A stretch of 51,446 nucleotides of DNA from a virus. Below, in pieces: positions 37,581 through 47,210 of the stretch. The first letter of the stretch is position 1, and each line of letters starts with the position of its first letter. Location: the IMG/VR virus record IMGVR_UViG_3300022540_000325, positions 1 to 51,446 of that record; one strand, written 5' to 3'. Position numbers and translations under genes: made by a program. The notes beneath the pieces are model-generated. The model had not been told where the DNA came from. It did not search any database and was given only the letters and a program-made list of their open reading frames with translations.

Positions 37581-37652
37581 GCACACTATATATCTATTGG
37601 GATGTATAGTTTAACCAGTGATAAGGGCAGCAGTGTCCTATGATTGCTGGTC

Positions 37653-37722
37653 GGCGAGGTCGTCTAATGTAGGACACTCCCTCTCTGGGGGAGCAATGTA
37701 GGCTCAAACCCTACCCTCGCTA
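37653..37722 (+). tRNA. tRNA-Glu-like RNA with aberrant elbow and anticodon loop
   Basis: Cloverleaf folds as: acceptor GGCGAGG/CCTCGCT (first pair G-T), D stem GTCT/GGAC with loop AATGTA, anticodon stem CTCCC/GGGAG with loop TCTCTGG, 4-nt variable loop CAAT, T arm GTAGG-CTCAAAC-CCTAC, discriminator A, no encoded CCA. U11-A24, U13-G22, A46 and missing base 47 are the D-arm identity elements of bacterial tRNA-Glu. Oddities: only one G in the D loop (the G18-G19 pair is incomplete), C for T54, and C at position 33. Formal anticodon UCU (Arg); CUC (Glu) is present one base out of register. Confidence 0.6.
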
Positions 37723-37748: not shown

Positions 37749-39320
37749 ATGGCATATAAAAAGTATGATTTCGCTGAAATACTAAAAGAATGTAACAAAA
37801 AGCACGGTACGCACCATAAACTTAATAAGCAAATAAGTAATGCTATGATAACATGTGATATCGGCAACAATTCTTTTATGGTTTCATATACATGTGATGA
37901 TGCCTCTCACAAAAGAGGTATATTAGATTTTGTATATTACAATGTATCCACGTCATCTCTTTTTCTTGAAGATATTATAGACATTATACAACACAAAGGG
38001 GAAGATTCTTTGAACCTAAGAATAGAAATATGGCCTTCAAGCAAGATAAGCTACGCTTATTTGCAAAGTAATTATCACGCTCCAAATGTAGGTAATTTAG
38101 GTAAGAGTTGCATGCGTCTCGAAGAAATGCAAAAAGCATTGAACTTTTATATTAAAAACAGAACAAAGATTGTTGTAGTTGTGGATAGTAATAACAAAAT
38201 TCATGCCCGTGCTTTGTTATGGGATAATGTTAGAAGTATAAAGCTCAAAACCCCATTTACTTACTTAGATAGAGTATATGCAAGGTCAGACACATTTTTA
38301 TGTTTGTTTTATGACTTAGCAAAAGAAAATAAATGGAAGTGGTATCCTACGGTTGCAGTTAACTGTATGGACAAAAATTATTATAAAGAAGATATATACG
38401 CAGCGGGTATGTGCCATTTACCTTTTATGGATACATTCAGATACCTATATCATAAAGATAATCTTCTTACTGCCAGCAGGGGCTTAGGTATAAGCAAAAA
38501 TTCTGACTCCTATACAGCTTTGAATGAATACACAAATCGTGGGTATTACCCAAGTCTTGACCCTGACAGGGTGCTGGAAGCAATTAGTAATAAATATATA
38601 TCCAAGAAGGATGCCATATTTGTAAAAAGGTATGATGCTTATGTATTGAAAAAGAATGTTGCAGATATAAATGGTACCTACTACAGTACCTTTGATAAAA
38701 AGGTAGTAAAAACAAAAATTGATGGGTATATACTTAAAGAAGATTCTGTAACAGAGGCGCTTACTGGTGAAACAATAGACAAAAATAATGCAATACAGTC
38801 TGCTAAATACGAGGGGTACATACATAAATCTAACATTATACACATCTGGGATGAAATATACCATAAATCTGACAACAACGTTATTCATTTTGATAATAAG
38901 TGGTATCACATATCACAGTGCTTTATAAATTATAATAGAGTCGGTGTGAATGACGACCTTGCAACACAAACAGGCTATACGCATTGTCCTCAAGACTATA
39001 CACCGTATTGGAGAAGGACAAGAGTGAATGATAAAAATAGCAAATATATAGGGCTTTCAAGAAAGGGTAATTTGATACCAAAAGAACACGCAATAATAGC
39101 GTATGACCTTGTTTACAATCCAATAGTAGACGATATTGAGTACCAAAAGGTATATTGCACAGACAGAAAAAACCTTATTCTACTTATTACTGGGGAGCTT
39201 ATAATAAACTCACCCGAAAACAAACAACACTTAAAAAAGTTTAGTAATAAATGGTACATAAAGCAAAACTTTAGGCTGCCAGATAAAAACCAGTTGCTAT
39301 TACTTGAAGATAAGAAATAA
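37749..39320 (+). CDS. 523-residue protein with tandem GYI-type repeats and a QLLLL tail
   Basis: Starts 27 bp after the tRNA-like RNA. Residues about 115-180 (NLGKSCMRLEEMQKALNF ... TKIVVVVDSNNKIHARALLWD ... YLDRVYARSD) match a domain I recall from other phage and giant-virus proteins; the VVVxDxxxKIxARALLW strand pair is faintly acetyltransferase-like. Residues about 280-400 repeat units such as YDAYVLKKNV, IDGYILKEDSV and YEGYIHKSNII. The C-terminus KNQLLLLEDKK resembles the tail of the small SH3-like family downstream. Function unknown; the neighbouring tRNA makes an aminoacyl-transfer role conceivable but unproven. Confidence 0.6.
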   Translation: MAYKKYDFAEILKECNKKHGTHHKLNKQISNAMITCDIGNNSFMVSYTCDDASHKRGILDFVYYNVSTSSLFLEDIIDIIQHKGEDSLNLRIEIWPSSKISYAYLQSNYHAPNVGNLGKSCMRLEEMQKALNFYIKNRTKIVVVVDSNNKIHARALLWDNVRSIKLKTPFTYLDRVYARSDTFLCLFYDLAKENKWKWYPTVAVNCMDKNYYKEDIYAAGMCHLPFMDTFRYLYHKDNLLTASRGLGISKNSDSYTALNEYTNRGYYPSLDPDRVLEAISNKYISKKDAIFVKRYDAYVLKKNVADINGTYYSTFDKKVVKTKIDGYILKEDSVTEALTGETIDKNNAIQSAKYEGYIHKSNIIHIWDEIYHKSDNNVIHFDNKWYHISQCFINYNRVGVNDDLATQTGYTHCPQDYTPYWRRTRVNDKNSKYIGLSRKGNLIPKEHAIIAYDLVYNPIVDDIEYQKVYCTDRKNLILLITGELIINSPENKQHLKKFSNKWYIKQNFRLPDKNQLLLLEDKK

Positions 39321-39338
39321 GGTCTACGGGGAGATTTT

Positions 39339-40700
39339 ATGGACACTTATTGGTTTAATAAATTGATTGAACTGCTCAAGGTTCAGACAAATAGCGAAAA
39401 TGAAAAGCTGATGGTGCTGTACCTTGACAAAGAGCTTAGGAAATTAAAATTACCTTACCAAATAGATGCTGCTGGTAATGTTATTGTTGTAAAAGGTAAG
39501 GCAAACACATATCCTTGTGTGGTATCACATATGGACACTGTGCACGACTTCACAGACAACTTTAACGTGTACCAAGATATAGACGACAAAGATATACTGT
39601 TTGCGATGGACGGTAAGACAAGAGTGGGTGTAGGTGGAGATGATAAATGTGGTGTGTTTGCGTGTTTATATTTATTAAAAATAATACCTCAAATAAAAAT
39701 TGTATTTTTCTCAAGAGAAGAAAATGGGTGTAAAGGCAGCACAGATATAGACAAAGGGTTTTTTGCTGATTGCCGATACTTAATCCAATTAGACAGGAGA
39801 GGAAGTAGGGACTTTATTCAAACCTATTGGGGCAATAAAACTATATCCCATGATTTCTCCTCTGAAATTGGGCTGATAAAAAGGAAATATAAATACAAAA
39901 ACTGTATCGGCACTGTTACTGATGTAATGAAATTATGGAATAACAAGGTTGGGGTTTCTTGCATCAATCTATCTTGTGGGTATTATAATCCCCACTCCAA
40001 CACTGAACACATATCTATCAAGACTCTATGGCATAGTATAGAATTTACAGAAGAAATAATAAATACCATGCAACCAAAGAGGTATACTTCTCTGCCTCCC
40101 AAACCAACTATAGTTAAAGTATCATATGCACCATTCTCATACAATTCAGGTTATAACCAATGTTGTAAGTGTAAAACATGGAAAAAAGAAGCTCTATTAT
40201 ACGAAGTCAAGGGCAACAAAACGGGTGAAATGATGTGTTGGTCTTGCAAAAGAGGCCCTGCCAAGAATAATCCAGTATCAAAGGAAAAAGAACAACAAAC
40301 TAAAGTATGGGATAAAAATACTGGTGGTAGTATAATCTTTGCTTGTCACGAATGTGGAATAACAACAGCTCAAATGGAAAAAGGTGATTCGCTTAAACAT
40401 ATGGGTACTGATAATCAGTTATACTGTAATAAATGTGCCTCAATATTCTTTGCACCTATTAAAAAACCTGTGAATTGTGAAATATGTGAGGATATAATTC
40501 CAGAAGGCCATTATCGTACGACAATACAAGGTATGTTAGTTTGTGGAGTGTGTGCTCACGAACTACACAAAGGGGATAACCTCCCCAAAGAGTGTTTTGT
40601 GTGTAATAAAGTAATACCGAAAGACCATAAGATAATAGAGAGATTCGGTGTACGTGTATGTGAAGATTGTGCTTGCCCAAGCGATATTATAGTTTGTTAA
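39339..40700 (+). CDS. M20-type zinc peptidase with C-terminal zinc ribbons
   Basis: 453 residues. Dinuclear zinc site motifs: SHMDT (His64, Asp66), GGDDKCG (bridging Asp near 101-102), SREENG (Glu127-128, catalytic base and ligand), QLDRRG (Asp152) and a late NPHSNTEH. This order is that of M20/M28 exopeptidases such as peptidase T. From about 275 on, several CxxC pairs (CCKCKTW, CWSC, CHEC, CNKC, CEIC, CGVC, CFVC, CEDC) form a string of zinc ribbons unusual for M20 enzymes. Substrate unknown; small peptides or amino-acid conjugates are usual. Confidence 0.8.
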   Translation: MDTYWFNKLIELLKVQTNSENEKLMVLYLDKELRKLKLPYQIDAAGNVIVVKGKANTYPCVVSHMDTVHDFTDNFNVYQDIDDKDILFAMDGKTRVGVGGDDKCGVFACLYLLKIIPQIKIVFFSREENGCKGSTDIDKGFFADCRYLIQLDRRGSRDFIQTYWGNKTISHDFSSEIGLIKRKYKYKNCIGTVTDVMKLWNNKVGVSCINLSCGYYNPHSNTEHISIKTLWHSIEFTEEIINTMQPKRYTSLPPKPTIVKVSYAPFSYNSGYNQCCKCKTWKKEALLYEVKGNKTGEMMCWSCKRGPAKNNPVSKEKEQQTKVWDKNTGGSIIFACHECGITTAQMEKGDSLKHMGTDNQLYCNKCASIFFAPIKKPVNCEICEDIIPEGHYRTTIQGMLVCGVCAHELHKGDNLPKECFVCNKVIPKDHKIIERFGVRVCEDCACPSDIIVC

Positions 40701-44684: not shown

Positions 44685-44714
44685 TTATGGTAATCACAAG
44701 GTTTGGAGAATATA

Positions 44715-45233
44715 GTGGCTAATACAATTAGAGAAGTTCCTGGCCACAAAGGGTATTATGCTACAATAGATGGTAGAATATGGTCTGCCCCTAAAATTGG
44801 AAGTAGCACAATGGGGATATATCTAAAGCCACGAGCCAAATCTTGTGGGCACTTGCAAATGTGCTTAATGCCAGATAAACGGAATTATTATGTGCATAGA
44901 TTAATATTAGAAACATTTGTAGGTAAATGTCCTGACGGTATGGAGGCATGTCATATAAATGGTAGCCCAGCCTGTAATCATATTTATAATCTACGTTGGG
45001 ACACTAAAAGTAATAACCAAAAAGACTCTATAAAATATGGAACGTACCCAGATAAAAGTGGAGAAAATAATCCATATTCCAAACTAAAAGAACAAGATGT
45101 ACGAATTACTGTTTATATGTATAAGATTGGTAAATTTACTCAAAAAAAGCTTGCAGAAATATATGGTGTAAAGCGTCAAACTATTAGTGATATAATTAAT
45201 AAAAGAAATTGGAAATACATTTGGAGGAATTAA
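44715..45233 (+). CDS. NUMOD4/HNH homing endonuclease
   Basis: 172 residues from GTG 44715, which follows TTTGGAGAA; a TTG at 44703 is in frame. IREVPGHKGYYATIDGRIWS is a NUMOD4 motif; VHRLILETFVG ... ACHINGSPACNHIYNLRW is the HNH core (His, Asn, His); the C-terminal LAEIYGVKRQTISDIINKRNW is a NUMOD-type HTH. It lies immediately before the GluRS gene, so the pair may have been acquired together or the endonuclease inserted there. Confidence 0.88.
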   Translation: MANTIREVPGHKGYYATIDGRIWSAPKIGSSTMGIYLKPRAKSCGHLQMCLMPDKRNYYVHRLILETFVGKCPDGMEACHINGSPACNHIYNLRWDTKSNNQKDSIKYGTYPDKSGENNPYSKLKEQDVRITVYMYKIGKFTQKKLAEIYGVKRQTISDIINKRNWKYIWRN

Positions 45234-45235
45234 TT

Positions 45236-46084
45236 ATGGTGGTAACTCGTTTCGCACCGTCTCCGACAGGCGAGCTTCATTGTGGTGGTGCAAGAACAGC
45301 ACTATTTAATTGGTTGTGGGCAAAGCACAATGGTGGGAAGTTTATCCTCCGTATCGAGGATACAGACCGTAGCAGGTATAATGAGGAATCGGTAAGTAGT
45401 ATAATGGAGGACTTACTGTGGCTCGGCTTAAATTGGGATGATGAAGTACCCTTCCAATCACAGCGTTTGGATATATACAACGAATTTATAAACAATCTAC
45501 TTCATAAGAACATTGCATATAAGAAGTCGGACACTCTTGCGGTTTTTCTTGGTGTACCCAAAAACCAGAAGATTGTTATACACGACACAATAGTAGGTGA
45601 TGTAACTTTTGACACCAAACACATTAAGAATTTTGTCATACGGAAAAGTGACGGGTTCCCGACATATAACTTTGCTTGTGTGATAGACGATTATCTGATG
45701 GGTGTATCCCATGTTATTCGTGGCAAAGAACACTTGAATAATTGTGCCCAACAACAAATCATCCGAAACTTATTGGGTATAGAGGGTTGCCCAGTCTATT
45801 CCCATGTATCTGTTATACTCAATATTGATGGAAGTAAAATGAGTAAGCGAAACACCAACAAAGTTAGTGTCAAAGATTACAGGGATAGTGGTATACTGCC
45901 GGAGGCTTTGTTGAATTATCTGGTTTTGTTGGGGTGGAGTATTGGGGGTGATAAAGAAATAATAAGTTTGAACGATTTGATAGGTGTTTTCTCCATTGGC
46001 AAGTTTAAGAAATCCAACAGTAAATTTGACGATAAAAAACTCCAGGCATTTAATCGTAAATATAGGAATATAGGACATGGGTGA
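45236..46084 (+). CDS. gltX-like: glutamyl-tRNA synthetase catalytic domain without anticodon-binding domain
   Basis: 282 residues from ATG 45236 after TTGGAGGA. Full class I catalytic core: TRFAPSPTGELHCGGART (HIGH motif as HCGG, residues 15-18), FNWLWAKHNGGKFILRIEDTDRSR, IRGKEHLNN, and KMSKR (201-205). The YRDSGILPEALLNYLVLLGWS stretch is that of true GluRS, not of GluQ-RS, and the zinc cysteines of GluQ-RS are absent. The chain stops after FDDKKLQAFNRKYRN, exactly before the C-terminal anticodon-binding domain (normal length about 470-490). It should form Glu-AMP; the acceptor is unknown. Stop overlaps the next ATG by 8 bp. Confidence 0.88.
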   Translation: MVVTRFAPSPTGELHCGGARTALFNWLWAKHNGGKFILRIEDTDRSRYNEESVSSIMEDLLWLGLNWDDEVPFQSQRLDIYNEFINNLLHKNIAYKKSDTLAVFLGVPKNQKIVIHDTIVGDVTFDTKHIKNFVIRKSDGFPTYNFACVIDDYLMGVSHVIRGKEHLNNCAQQQIIRNLLGIEGCPVYSHVSVILNIDGSKMSKRNTNKVSVKDYRDSGILPEALLNYLVLLGWSIGGDKEIISLNDLIGVFSIGKFKKSNSKFDDKKLQAFNRKYRNIGHG

Positions 46085-46337: not shown

Positions 46338-47210
46338 ATGCCATTATATAGTTTTAGGAAGGACATGGGCAAGATTAGGGATTCTATGGGTAAGCCTTTC
46401 GATGGTATACCTTCTGGAATAAAAGCATTAGATGATAAGATTTTGGGTTTTGGTAAGGGGGAGTTGTGCATTATAGGTGGTAGGCCAGGGTTAGGAAAAT
46501 CATCATTGGCGAGGGACATACTATTACATAACAGCAAACCAGGAGTTACAAGTGATATGAGTTTGTTGTGCACGATGGAGATGCCCGCCTATGAGATATG
46601 TAATTATATGGCAGCTACATTAGCGATGGTTAGTTTTAGAGACATACAACAGGGCTGTGCTACCGAGAAGATGGTGGAAAGATTTAATGCAAAATGTGAC
46701 GAGTTAACCAAGTATCAAATATACATTCAGGATGATTCATCCACCACACCAGAAACTATCCGGAATGATTTATTAACCATCTATGAGGATTACCCTGTGT
46801 CCTGTTTAATTGTAGATTACTTGCAACTTATGTCTTTACACAAGCCTGTTGAAAGCAGGGAGCGGGAAATAGCTGAAATAGGCAGAGATTTGAAGGCAAT
46901 AGCTATGGAGTTTAACATCCCAGTTATAGCCCTTTCTCAACTAAGTAGGAAAGCGGAGTTCAGAGAATCCTCCCGACCCCGTATAACAGATTTACGGGAG
47001 AGTGGGTCATTAGAACAAGATACAAGTAAAGTCATTCTAATACATAGACCAAGTTATCATTTGCAGCAGGATGACCCTAACATAGAAGATGATGGAGAGG
47101 CAGAACTTATTATTCCTAAACAACGGGGTGGCAAGAATAGCATAGTTAAGTGTGCATTTATCGGTGAGTGGACATCCTTTCGTGATTTACCAGAAGAGGA
47201 GGATTTTTAG
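46338..47210 (+). CDS. DnaB-type replicative helicase, ATPase domain
   Basis: 290 residues: only the RecA-like C-terminal domain of DnaB. Walker A GGRPGLGKSS (about 47-56), Walker B CLIVDYLQLM, the ALSQLSRKAEFR motif (H3, base-sensing region) and an arginine-finger-bearing KQRGGKN. The N-terminal primase-binding domain is missing, as in many phages. The end, LPEEEDF, is acidic with a final Phe, loosely like an SSB tip. Unwinds DNA at the fork with the primase encoded at 47895. Confidence 0.9.
   Translation: MPLYSFRKDMGKIRDSMGKPFDGIPSGIKALDDKILGFGKGELCIIGGRPGLGKSSLARDILLHNSKPGVTSDMSLLCTMEMPAYEICNYMAATLAMVSFRDIQQGCATEKMVERFNAKCDELTKYQIYIQDDSSTTPETIRNDLLTIYEDYPVSCLIVDYLQLMSLHKPVESREREIAEIGRDLKAIAMEFNIPVIALSQLSRKAEFRESSRPRITDLRESGSLEQDTSKVILIHRPSYHLQQDDPNIEDDGEAELIIPKQRGGKNSIVKCAFIGEWTSFRDLPEEEDF

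What the first reader, a model, noticed from the sequence alone, without database searches (positions are those of the whole stretch)
37653..37722. tRNA-Glu-like RNA with features of a non-translating tRNA
The D arm keeps tRNA-Glu identity (U11-A24, U13-G22, A46, no base 47), yet the D loop has only one G, T54 is C, and the anticodon loop TCTCTGG has C33 and reads as UCU. Staphylococcal tRNA-Gly isoacceptors reserved for cell-wall synthesis also lost the D-loop GG and T-loop bases so as to escape EF-Tu. With an anticodon-blind GluRS in the same genome, a Glu-tRNA made for something other than ribosomes is an attractive idea. Decoding of AGA or simple decay are alternatives.
Basis: partly seen in the sequence, partly recalled or inferred. 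Interest (0 to 1): 0.8.

Follow-up and report, generated by a model that had tools for sequence, protein, structure and literature searches.

The report
Phage tRNA-Glu without glutamate anticodon
A bacterial virus carries a well-folded glutamate-type tRNA that has lost its glutamate anticodon, together with its own glutamate-charging enzyme that lacks the anticodon-reading part; related viruses without that enzyme keep a normal glutamate anticodon, which suggests that the charged tRNA is made for something other than reading codons.

Summary
37653-37722 is a complete cloverleaf (Rfam tRNA 46.7 bits; 21/21 stem pairs) with Glu-type D-arm features, one D-loop G, C54, C33 and a UCU anticodon; ARAGORN misses it. 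It is not decayed. Seven divergent phages carry a homologous tRNA at this place, with 146 of 147 stem cells paired and 17 of 21 pairs showing double changes. Two unreported conserved hairpins sit directly upstream in all seven.

Four relatives whose GluRS site is empty, and one whose site is off-contig, keep the Glu loop UUCUCAG (anticodon CUC). The two lineages with a phage GluRS that ends before the anticodon-binding domain (window; L003/L004) have lost CUC in different ways. GluRS is under strong purifying selection. AGA is not recoded. This fits a Glu-tRNA charged without regard to anticodon and no longer used for Glu codons. With only two GluRS-bearing lineages the link is not statistically secure.

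The 'EF-Tu escape' argument fails as a family signature: relatives with intact CUC share elbow defects. The acceptor of the glutamate is unknown; the next gene's poor model resembles GNAT transferases, a weak lead. Charging, expression and function are untested.

The parts
37585..37610 (+). Hairpin 1 (11 bp in the window, 4-base loop, CANTGG-like apex), first part of the conserved leader
   Evidence: folds in window and L004; 10 pairs kept in 7/7 phages, 6 with double changes
37614..37651 (+). Hairpin 2 (9 bp, bulge, inner stem), ends one base before the tRNA
   Evidence: sequence nearly invariant in 6 phages, replaced by a different but paired stem in L004
37653..37722 (+). tRNA-Glu-like RNA, full cloverleaf with A73, no encoded CCA
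   Evidence: Rfam RF00005 46.7 bits; 21/21 stem pairs; covariation
37662..37675 (+). D arm GTCT-AATGTA-GGAC: U11-A24, U13-G22; only one G in the loop
   Evidence: sequence; U13-G22 in 7/7, U11-A24 in 5/7 of the family
37677..37693 (+). Anticodon arm CTCCC-TCTCTGG-GGGAG: C33, anticodon UCU at 37684-37686; CUC present one base out of register
   Evidence: sequence; five relatives have TTCTCAG
37698..37714 (+). T arm GTAGG-CTCAAAC-CCTAC with C54
   Evidence: sequence; T stem covaries
45236..46084 (+). Mini-GluRS: catalytic plus stem-contact part only, ends at the domain boundary; HIGH-type (HCGG) and KMSKR motifs present
   Evidence: TIGR00464 359.6 bits over cutoff 289.95; aligns to T. thermophilus GluRS up to residue 317 of 468; nearest full-length bacterial homologues are 422-435 aa
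37749..39320 (+). 523-aa protein downstream of the tRNA; low-confidence GNAT-fold resemblance; candidate user of the charged tRNA (speculative)
   Evidence: homologues in 7 phages; Foldseek PDB top hits mostly GNAT, best E 0.03, not significant; no Pfam family

Best explanation
The window phage carries a structurally maintained tRNA-Glu descendant that no longer has a Glu anticodon, and a matching glutamyl-tRNA synthetase reduced to its catalytic and stem-contact part. The mini-GluRS most likely recognises the acceptor, D arm, A46 and absence of base 47, ignores the anticodon, and charges this tRNA with glutamate. Because the anticodon is no longer needed for charging or for GAG decoding, it drifted (window: one-base register shift giving UCU with C33; L003/L004: a short or otherwise abnormal anticodon arm). 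The Glu-tRNA would then be used outside normal Glu decoding, probably as glutamate donor to an acceptor not yet known. Shown: RNA structure under selection, GluRS under selection and truncated at the domain boundary, co-variation of GluRS presence with anticodon loss, no recoding of AGA. Inferred: charging, non-ribosomal use. Unknown: the acceptor.
For: Stem conservation with compensatory changes in all four helices, including the anticodon stem. UUCUCAG invariant in the four relatives with an empty GluRS site (L010, L011, L102, L101/L107) and in L108, changed only in the window and L003/L004, which have the GluRS. GluRS is the only gene of this block shared by window and L004 but missing from the other four. 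Window groups with GluRS-less L010 (98/98), giving two independent changes on the best tree, both in the same direction. GluRS: 76% identity against 50-56% for neighbours at equal four-fold divergence (0.62 against 0.58-0.63). The protein ends at about residue 317 of T. thermophilus GluRS; PMC3927822 puts the catalytic/anticodon-binding boundary at 322/323. Known Glu identity elements outside the anticodon (U11-A24, U13-G22:A46, no 47; PMC9976931) are present. AGA aligns with Arg 57%, Lys 20%, Glu 1.8%.
Against: Only two independent GluRS-bearing lineages; the sign test cannot reach significance (p 0.5) and a window+L004 clade is not rejected (AU p 0.20). No expression, charging or acceptor evidence. 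No known Glu-tRNA-using enzyme was found by Pfam in the window. The homologous tRNA in L108 looks close to an ordinary tRNA-Glu(CUC). Elbow defects do not track GluRS. U35 and C36 are strong Glu determinants for E. coli GluRS, so charging without them needs proof.
Confidence: 0.45

Rival explanations
1. The whole leader-plus-cloverleaf is a structural or regulatory RNA (processing signal, transcript-end or leader element, nuclease decoy or regulator). The tRNA shape is kept but not charged, and the GluRS serves another RNA.
For: Two conserved hairpins abut the tRNA in all seven phages. The element lies in a gene-dense same-strand block. B. cereus tRNA-Other is a poorly charged tRNA-like part of a larger regulatory RNA (PMC3399842).
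Against: The anticodon loop is strictly CUC in all GluRS-less relatives, which a purely structural element would not need. A GluRS is present exactly where that anticodon is lost. Glu identity features of the D arm persist.
Confidence: 0.22
2. Anticodon-nuclease evasion: the anticodon loop was altered so that a host tRNase cannot cut the phage tRNA, and the phage GluRS restores charging of the altered tRNA.
For: Phage tRNAs with anticodon-loop changes that avoid VapC nucleases are described (PMC10264068). The changes that set the GluRS-bearing lineages apart are in the anticodon arm.
Against: The altered tRNA could no longer read Glu codons, so evasion alone does not restore Glu decoding. No nuclease or host is known.
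Confidence: 0.1
3. Anticodon switch to tRNA-Arg(UCU): the host ArgRS charges it and it decodes AGA, a common codon in this phage.
For: UCU anticodon, C35, U36 and A73 in the window; AGA is about 39% of Arg codons.
Against: Would not explain L003/L004 (ACU, five-base loop or no base 26, no long variable arm for Ser). AGA share is not raised over relatives (0.29-0.42). C33 and the missing A20 disfavour it (own knowledge of Arg identity). It leaves the co-occurring GluRS unexplained.
Confidence: 0.1
4. Relaxed relic: the mini-GluRS charges host tRNA-Glu (for example under-modified tRNA), which made the phage tRNA redundant, and it is drifting.
For: Elbow irregularities in several members (D-loop insert in L011; C54, G55 or C55 in others); a second degenerate tRNA-like copy in L107.
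Against: All 21 stem pairs are intact in window and L004 despite saturated synonymous divergence; five double and two single compensated changes separate them.
Confidence: 0.13

Closest known systems
Non-proteinogenic staphylococcal tRNA-Gly used for cell-wall bridges (PMC4052509)
   Same: A tRNA proposed to be diverted from translation to an enzyme; loss of D-loop GG in the window
   Different: There the explanation is weak EF-Tu binding of Gly isoacceptors; here the anticodon is lost, a dedicated synthetase is present, and D-loop loss does not track it
Bacillus cereus tRNA-Other pseudo-tRNA (PMC3399842)
   Same: tRNA-like RNA not used in translation, possibly part of a larger RNA
   Different: Trp anticodon, poorly charged, bacterial chromosome; no dedicated truncated synthetase named in the passages read
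GluQRS (YadB), a GluRS paralogue without anticodon-binding domain
   Same: Catalytic-domain-only GluRS architecture
   Different: The phage protein scores above the bacterial GltX cutoff (359.6 against 289.95) and below all GluQRS cutoffs (192 against 250 or more); a tree without GluQRS rows places it among bacterial GluRS, near Planctomycetota
Phage tRNAs with anticodon-loop mutations that evade tRNases (PMC10264068)
   Same: Phage tRNA with changed anticodon loop
   Different: Those are treated as decoding tRNAs; the paper's main text does not mention synthetases

Membership tests
tRNA (Rfam RF00005) | Cloverleaf matching the tRNA covariance model above gathering score | tested here: met
   46.7 bits against 29
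tRNA-Glu | U11-A24, U13-G22:A46, no base 47 | tested here: met
   read from sequence; identity elements from PMC9976931
tRNA-Glu | Glu anticodon (UUC or CUC) with U33 | tested here: not met
   loop TCTCTGG, anticodon UCU, C33; met in five relatives
tRNA-Glu | Charged with glutamate | not testable with these tools
   needs aminoacylation assay
tRNA-Arg(UCU) | Codon use adapted to AGA decoding; same anticodon kept in relatives | tested here: not met
   AGA share not raised over relatives; no relative has an Arg anticodon
Bacterial GluRS (GltX) | Catalytic domain with class I motifs | tested here: met
   TIGR00464 over cutoff; HCGG and KMSKR
Bacterial GluRS (GltX) | C-terminal anticodon-binding domain | tested here: not met
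   281-282 aa, ends at about T. thermophilus residue 317 of 468
GluQRS | Scores over the GluQRS equivalog cutoffs | tested here: not met
   192 bits at best against cutoffs of 250 or more
EF-Tu-escaping non-proteinogenic tRNA | Loss of D-loop GG and weak T-stem pairs, consistent across members | tested here: not met
   L004, L102, L107 and L108 keep GG; window G49-C65/A51-U63, L004 G49-U65/A51-U63: mixed
EF-Tu-escaping non-proteinogenic tRNA | Weak EF-Tu binding measured | not testable with these tools
   needs binding assay

The most novel reading that the evidence does not exclude
A virus-encoded private Glu-tRNA/GluRS pair from which the anticodon has been removed on both sides (no Glu anticodon on the tRNA, no anticodon-binding domain on the enzyme), supplying activated glutamate to a non-ribosomal transferase, possibly the GNAT-like protein encoded just downstream, within a conserved hairpin-hairpin-tRNA element.
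Probability: 0.3. Interest if true: 0.85.

Novelty: new variant of a known kind. Interest (0 to 1): 0.62.

Why it matters
If right, it is a natural tRNA/synthetase pair freed from the codon table inside a virus. It would give a testable route to a viral glutamylation pathway and a compact GluRS that charges without reading the anticodon. It also offers a direct comparison: related phages with and without the enzyme, with lost and intact anticodons.

Tried and rejected
AGA read as Glu: rejected by codon-to-residue alignment with relatives. Raised AGA or changed GAG use: none clear. Known RNA family for the hairpins: none in Rfam. Known Glu-tRNA users in the window by Pfam: none. Relatives in cultured phages: none for the tRNA; the 523-aa protein and peptidase have distant homologues there without a shared tRNA arrangement. 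DNA-pattern scans gave no new family members; the other hits look like chance. AlphaFold of the mini-GluRS failed (pLDDT 36, two sequences), so the domain claim rests on alignment. The AlphaFold model of the 523-aa protein is poor (pLDDT 59), and its GNAT hits are not significant. A second copy of hairpin 2 in the window: none above chance.

Full report
What is there. At 37653-37722 (+) lies a complete tRNA cloverleaf. Rfam's tRNA model gives 46.7 bits against a gathering score of 29; the default Rfam scan and ARAGORN miss it. The acceptor closes with G1-U72, the next base is A73, and no CCA is encoded.

Relatives. The window is a virus record of 51,446 bases from IMG/VR. Searches with the GluRS, the 523-aa neighbour and the adjacent peptidase gave six further phage groups: L003/L004 (the same sequence at the tRNA), L010, L011, L102, L101/L107 and L108. 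All carry a tRNA upstream of the same 523-aa gene: L004 3904-3974, L010 9570-9642, L011 9862-9964 with an insert of about 30 bases in the D loop, L102 7816-7890, L107 9491-9573, L108 9894-9967.

It is not a relic. Over the seven tRNAs 146 of 147 stem cells are standard pairs, 17 of 21 pairs show a change on both sides, and none of 500 shuffles reaches these values. Directly upstream, all seven have two more hairpins, at window 37585-37610 and 37614-37651. Together with the tRNA, 24 of 45 pairs show double changes. No Rfam family matches the hairpins. The functional RNA is therefore probably larger than the tRNA.

The anticodon and the synthetase. In L010, L011, L102, L107 and L108 the anticodon loop is exactly UUCUCAG, that is, U33 and a Glu anticodon CUC. 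In the window it is UCUCUGG; CUC is still visible, one base out of register. In L003/L004 the arm is GCUUGUUACUGACAAGU: either base 26 is present and the loop has five bases, or base 26 is missing and a seven-base loop shows ACU; neither is a Glu anticodon. Only the window, its near-identical partner L002 (whose contig does not reach the tRNA) and L003/L004 encode a GluRS. In L010, L011, L102 and L101 the GluRS spot next to the DnaB gene is on the contig and empty; of the genes in this block, GluRS is the only one shared by window and L004 but missing from those four (genes beyond the ends of the held loci were not compared). On a four-gene tree the window groups with GluRS-less L010 (98/98), so GluRS and anticodon state change together twice. 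This cannot reach significance with two pairs, and a window+L004 clade is not rejected (AU p 0.20).

The synthetase. The protein is a bacterial-type GluRS (TIGR00464, 359.6 bits over cutoff 289.95) and falls below all GluQRS cutoffs. It aligns to T. thermophilus GluRS up to residue 317 of 468; the domain boundary is put at 322/323 (PMC3927822). The nearest bacterial homologues by sequence are 422-435 aa, so about 150 C-terminal residues are missing. The tree puts it with Planctomycetota and Verrucomicrobiota sequences, a hint at most about the host. Between window and L004 it is 76% identical while neighbouring genes are 50-56%, at the same saturated four-fold divergence: it is under strong purifying selection.

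How it probably works. Known Glu identity lies in the anticodon loop and in U11-A24, U13-G22:A46 and the lack of base 47 (PMC9976931). A GluRS without anticodon-binding domain can use only the second set, and the phage tRNA keeps that set. I infer that relatives without the enzyme depend on the host GluRS and so keep CUC, while phages with their own enzyme do not need it. If GAG decoding were the purpose, losing CUC would end the function, yet both RNA and enzyme are maintained. A role for Glu-tRNA outside Glu decoding is therefore the best reading (0.45), not a shown fact. AGA in the window aligns with Arg (57%) or Lys (20%), Glu 1.8%, so AGA is not read as Glu to any visible extent.

D-loop and T-loop defects are not tied to the supposed non-translating state: L010 lacks the D-loop GG, L011 has an insert and G55, L102 has C55, all with a CUC anticodon, while L004 keeps GG. 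T-stem pairs thought to weaken EF-Tu binding (PMC4052509) are mixed. And L108 has a nearly ordinary tRNA-Glu(CUC) at this place.

Possible user of the charged tRNA. No known Glu-tRNA-dependent enzyme was found among the window's proteins. The 523-aa protein has no Pfam match; a low-confidence model (pLDDT 59) resembles GNAT-fold proteins, a fold that includes tRNA-dependent transferases such as FemA and MprF, but no hit is significant (best E 0.03). Homologues next to a peptidase also occur in phages without a tRNA beside them. This is a lead only.

Verdict. It is a new variant of known non-canonical tRNAs, with a testable mechanism and an unknown acceptor.

Noticed in passing
window 37585-37651 and equivalents in six relatives: Two conserved hairpins directly upstream of the tRNA, with covariation and a conserved apex (C-A-N-T-G-G-like) in hairpin 1; no Rfam family.
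   Followed up: partly
window 46338-47210: The window's DnaB-like helicase is an outlier (56-58% to all relatives, which are 80-90% alike among themselves), unlike the other genes, suggesting that the segment next to the GluRS was exchanged.
   Followed up: partly
window 44703-45233: An HNH endonuclease lies directly before the GluRS; a homologue sits elsewhere in L102 and none was found in L004. Possible vehicle of the exchange.
   Followed up: no
L107 9880-9958: A second, degenerate tRNA-like stretch (T arm ATATG-CTCAAAC-CGTAT) between a small gene and the 523-aa gene.
   Followed up: no
L004 3942-5402: The homologue of the 523-aa protein has lost about 90 N-terminal residues and its open frame runs back into the 3' part of the tRNA.
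   Followed up: partly
window 37749-40700: The 523-aa protein and the M20/M28-like peptidase with C-terminal zinc ribbons form a pair also seen in Cellulophaga phages and, by structure, in Klebsiella phage KpV48; function unknown.
   Followed up: partly
window 37653-37722: ARAGORN and the default Rfam scan miss this tRNA; such phage tRNAs may be undercounted. The fast genome search also missed the L108 copy.
   Followed up: no
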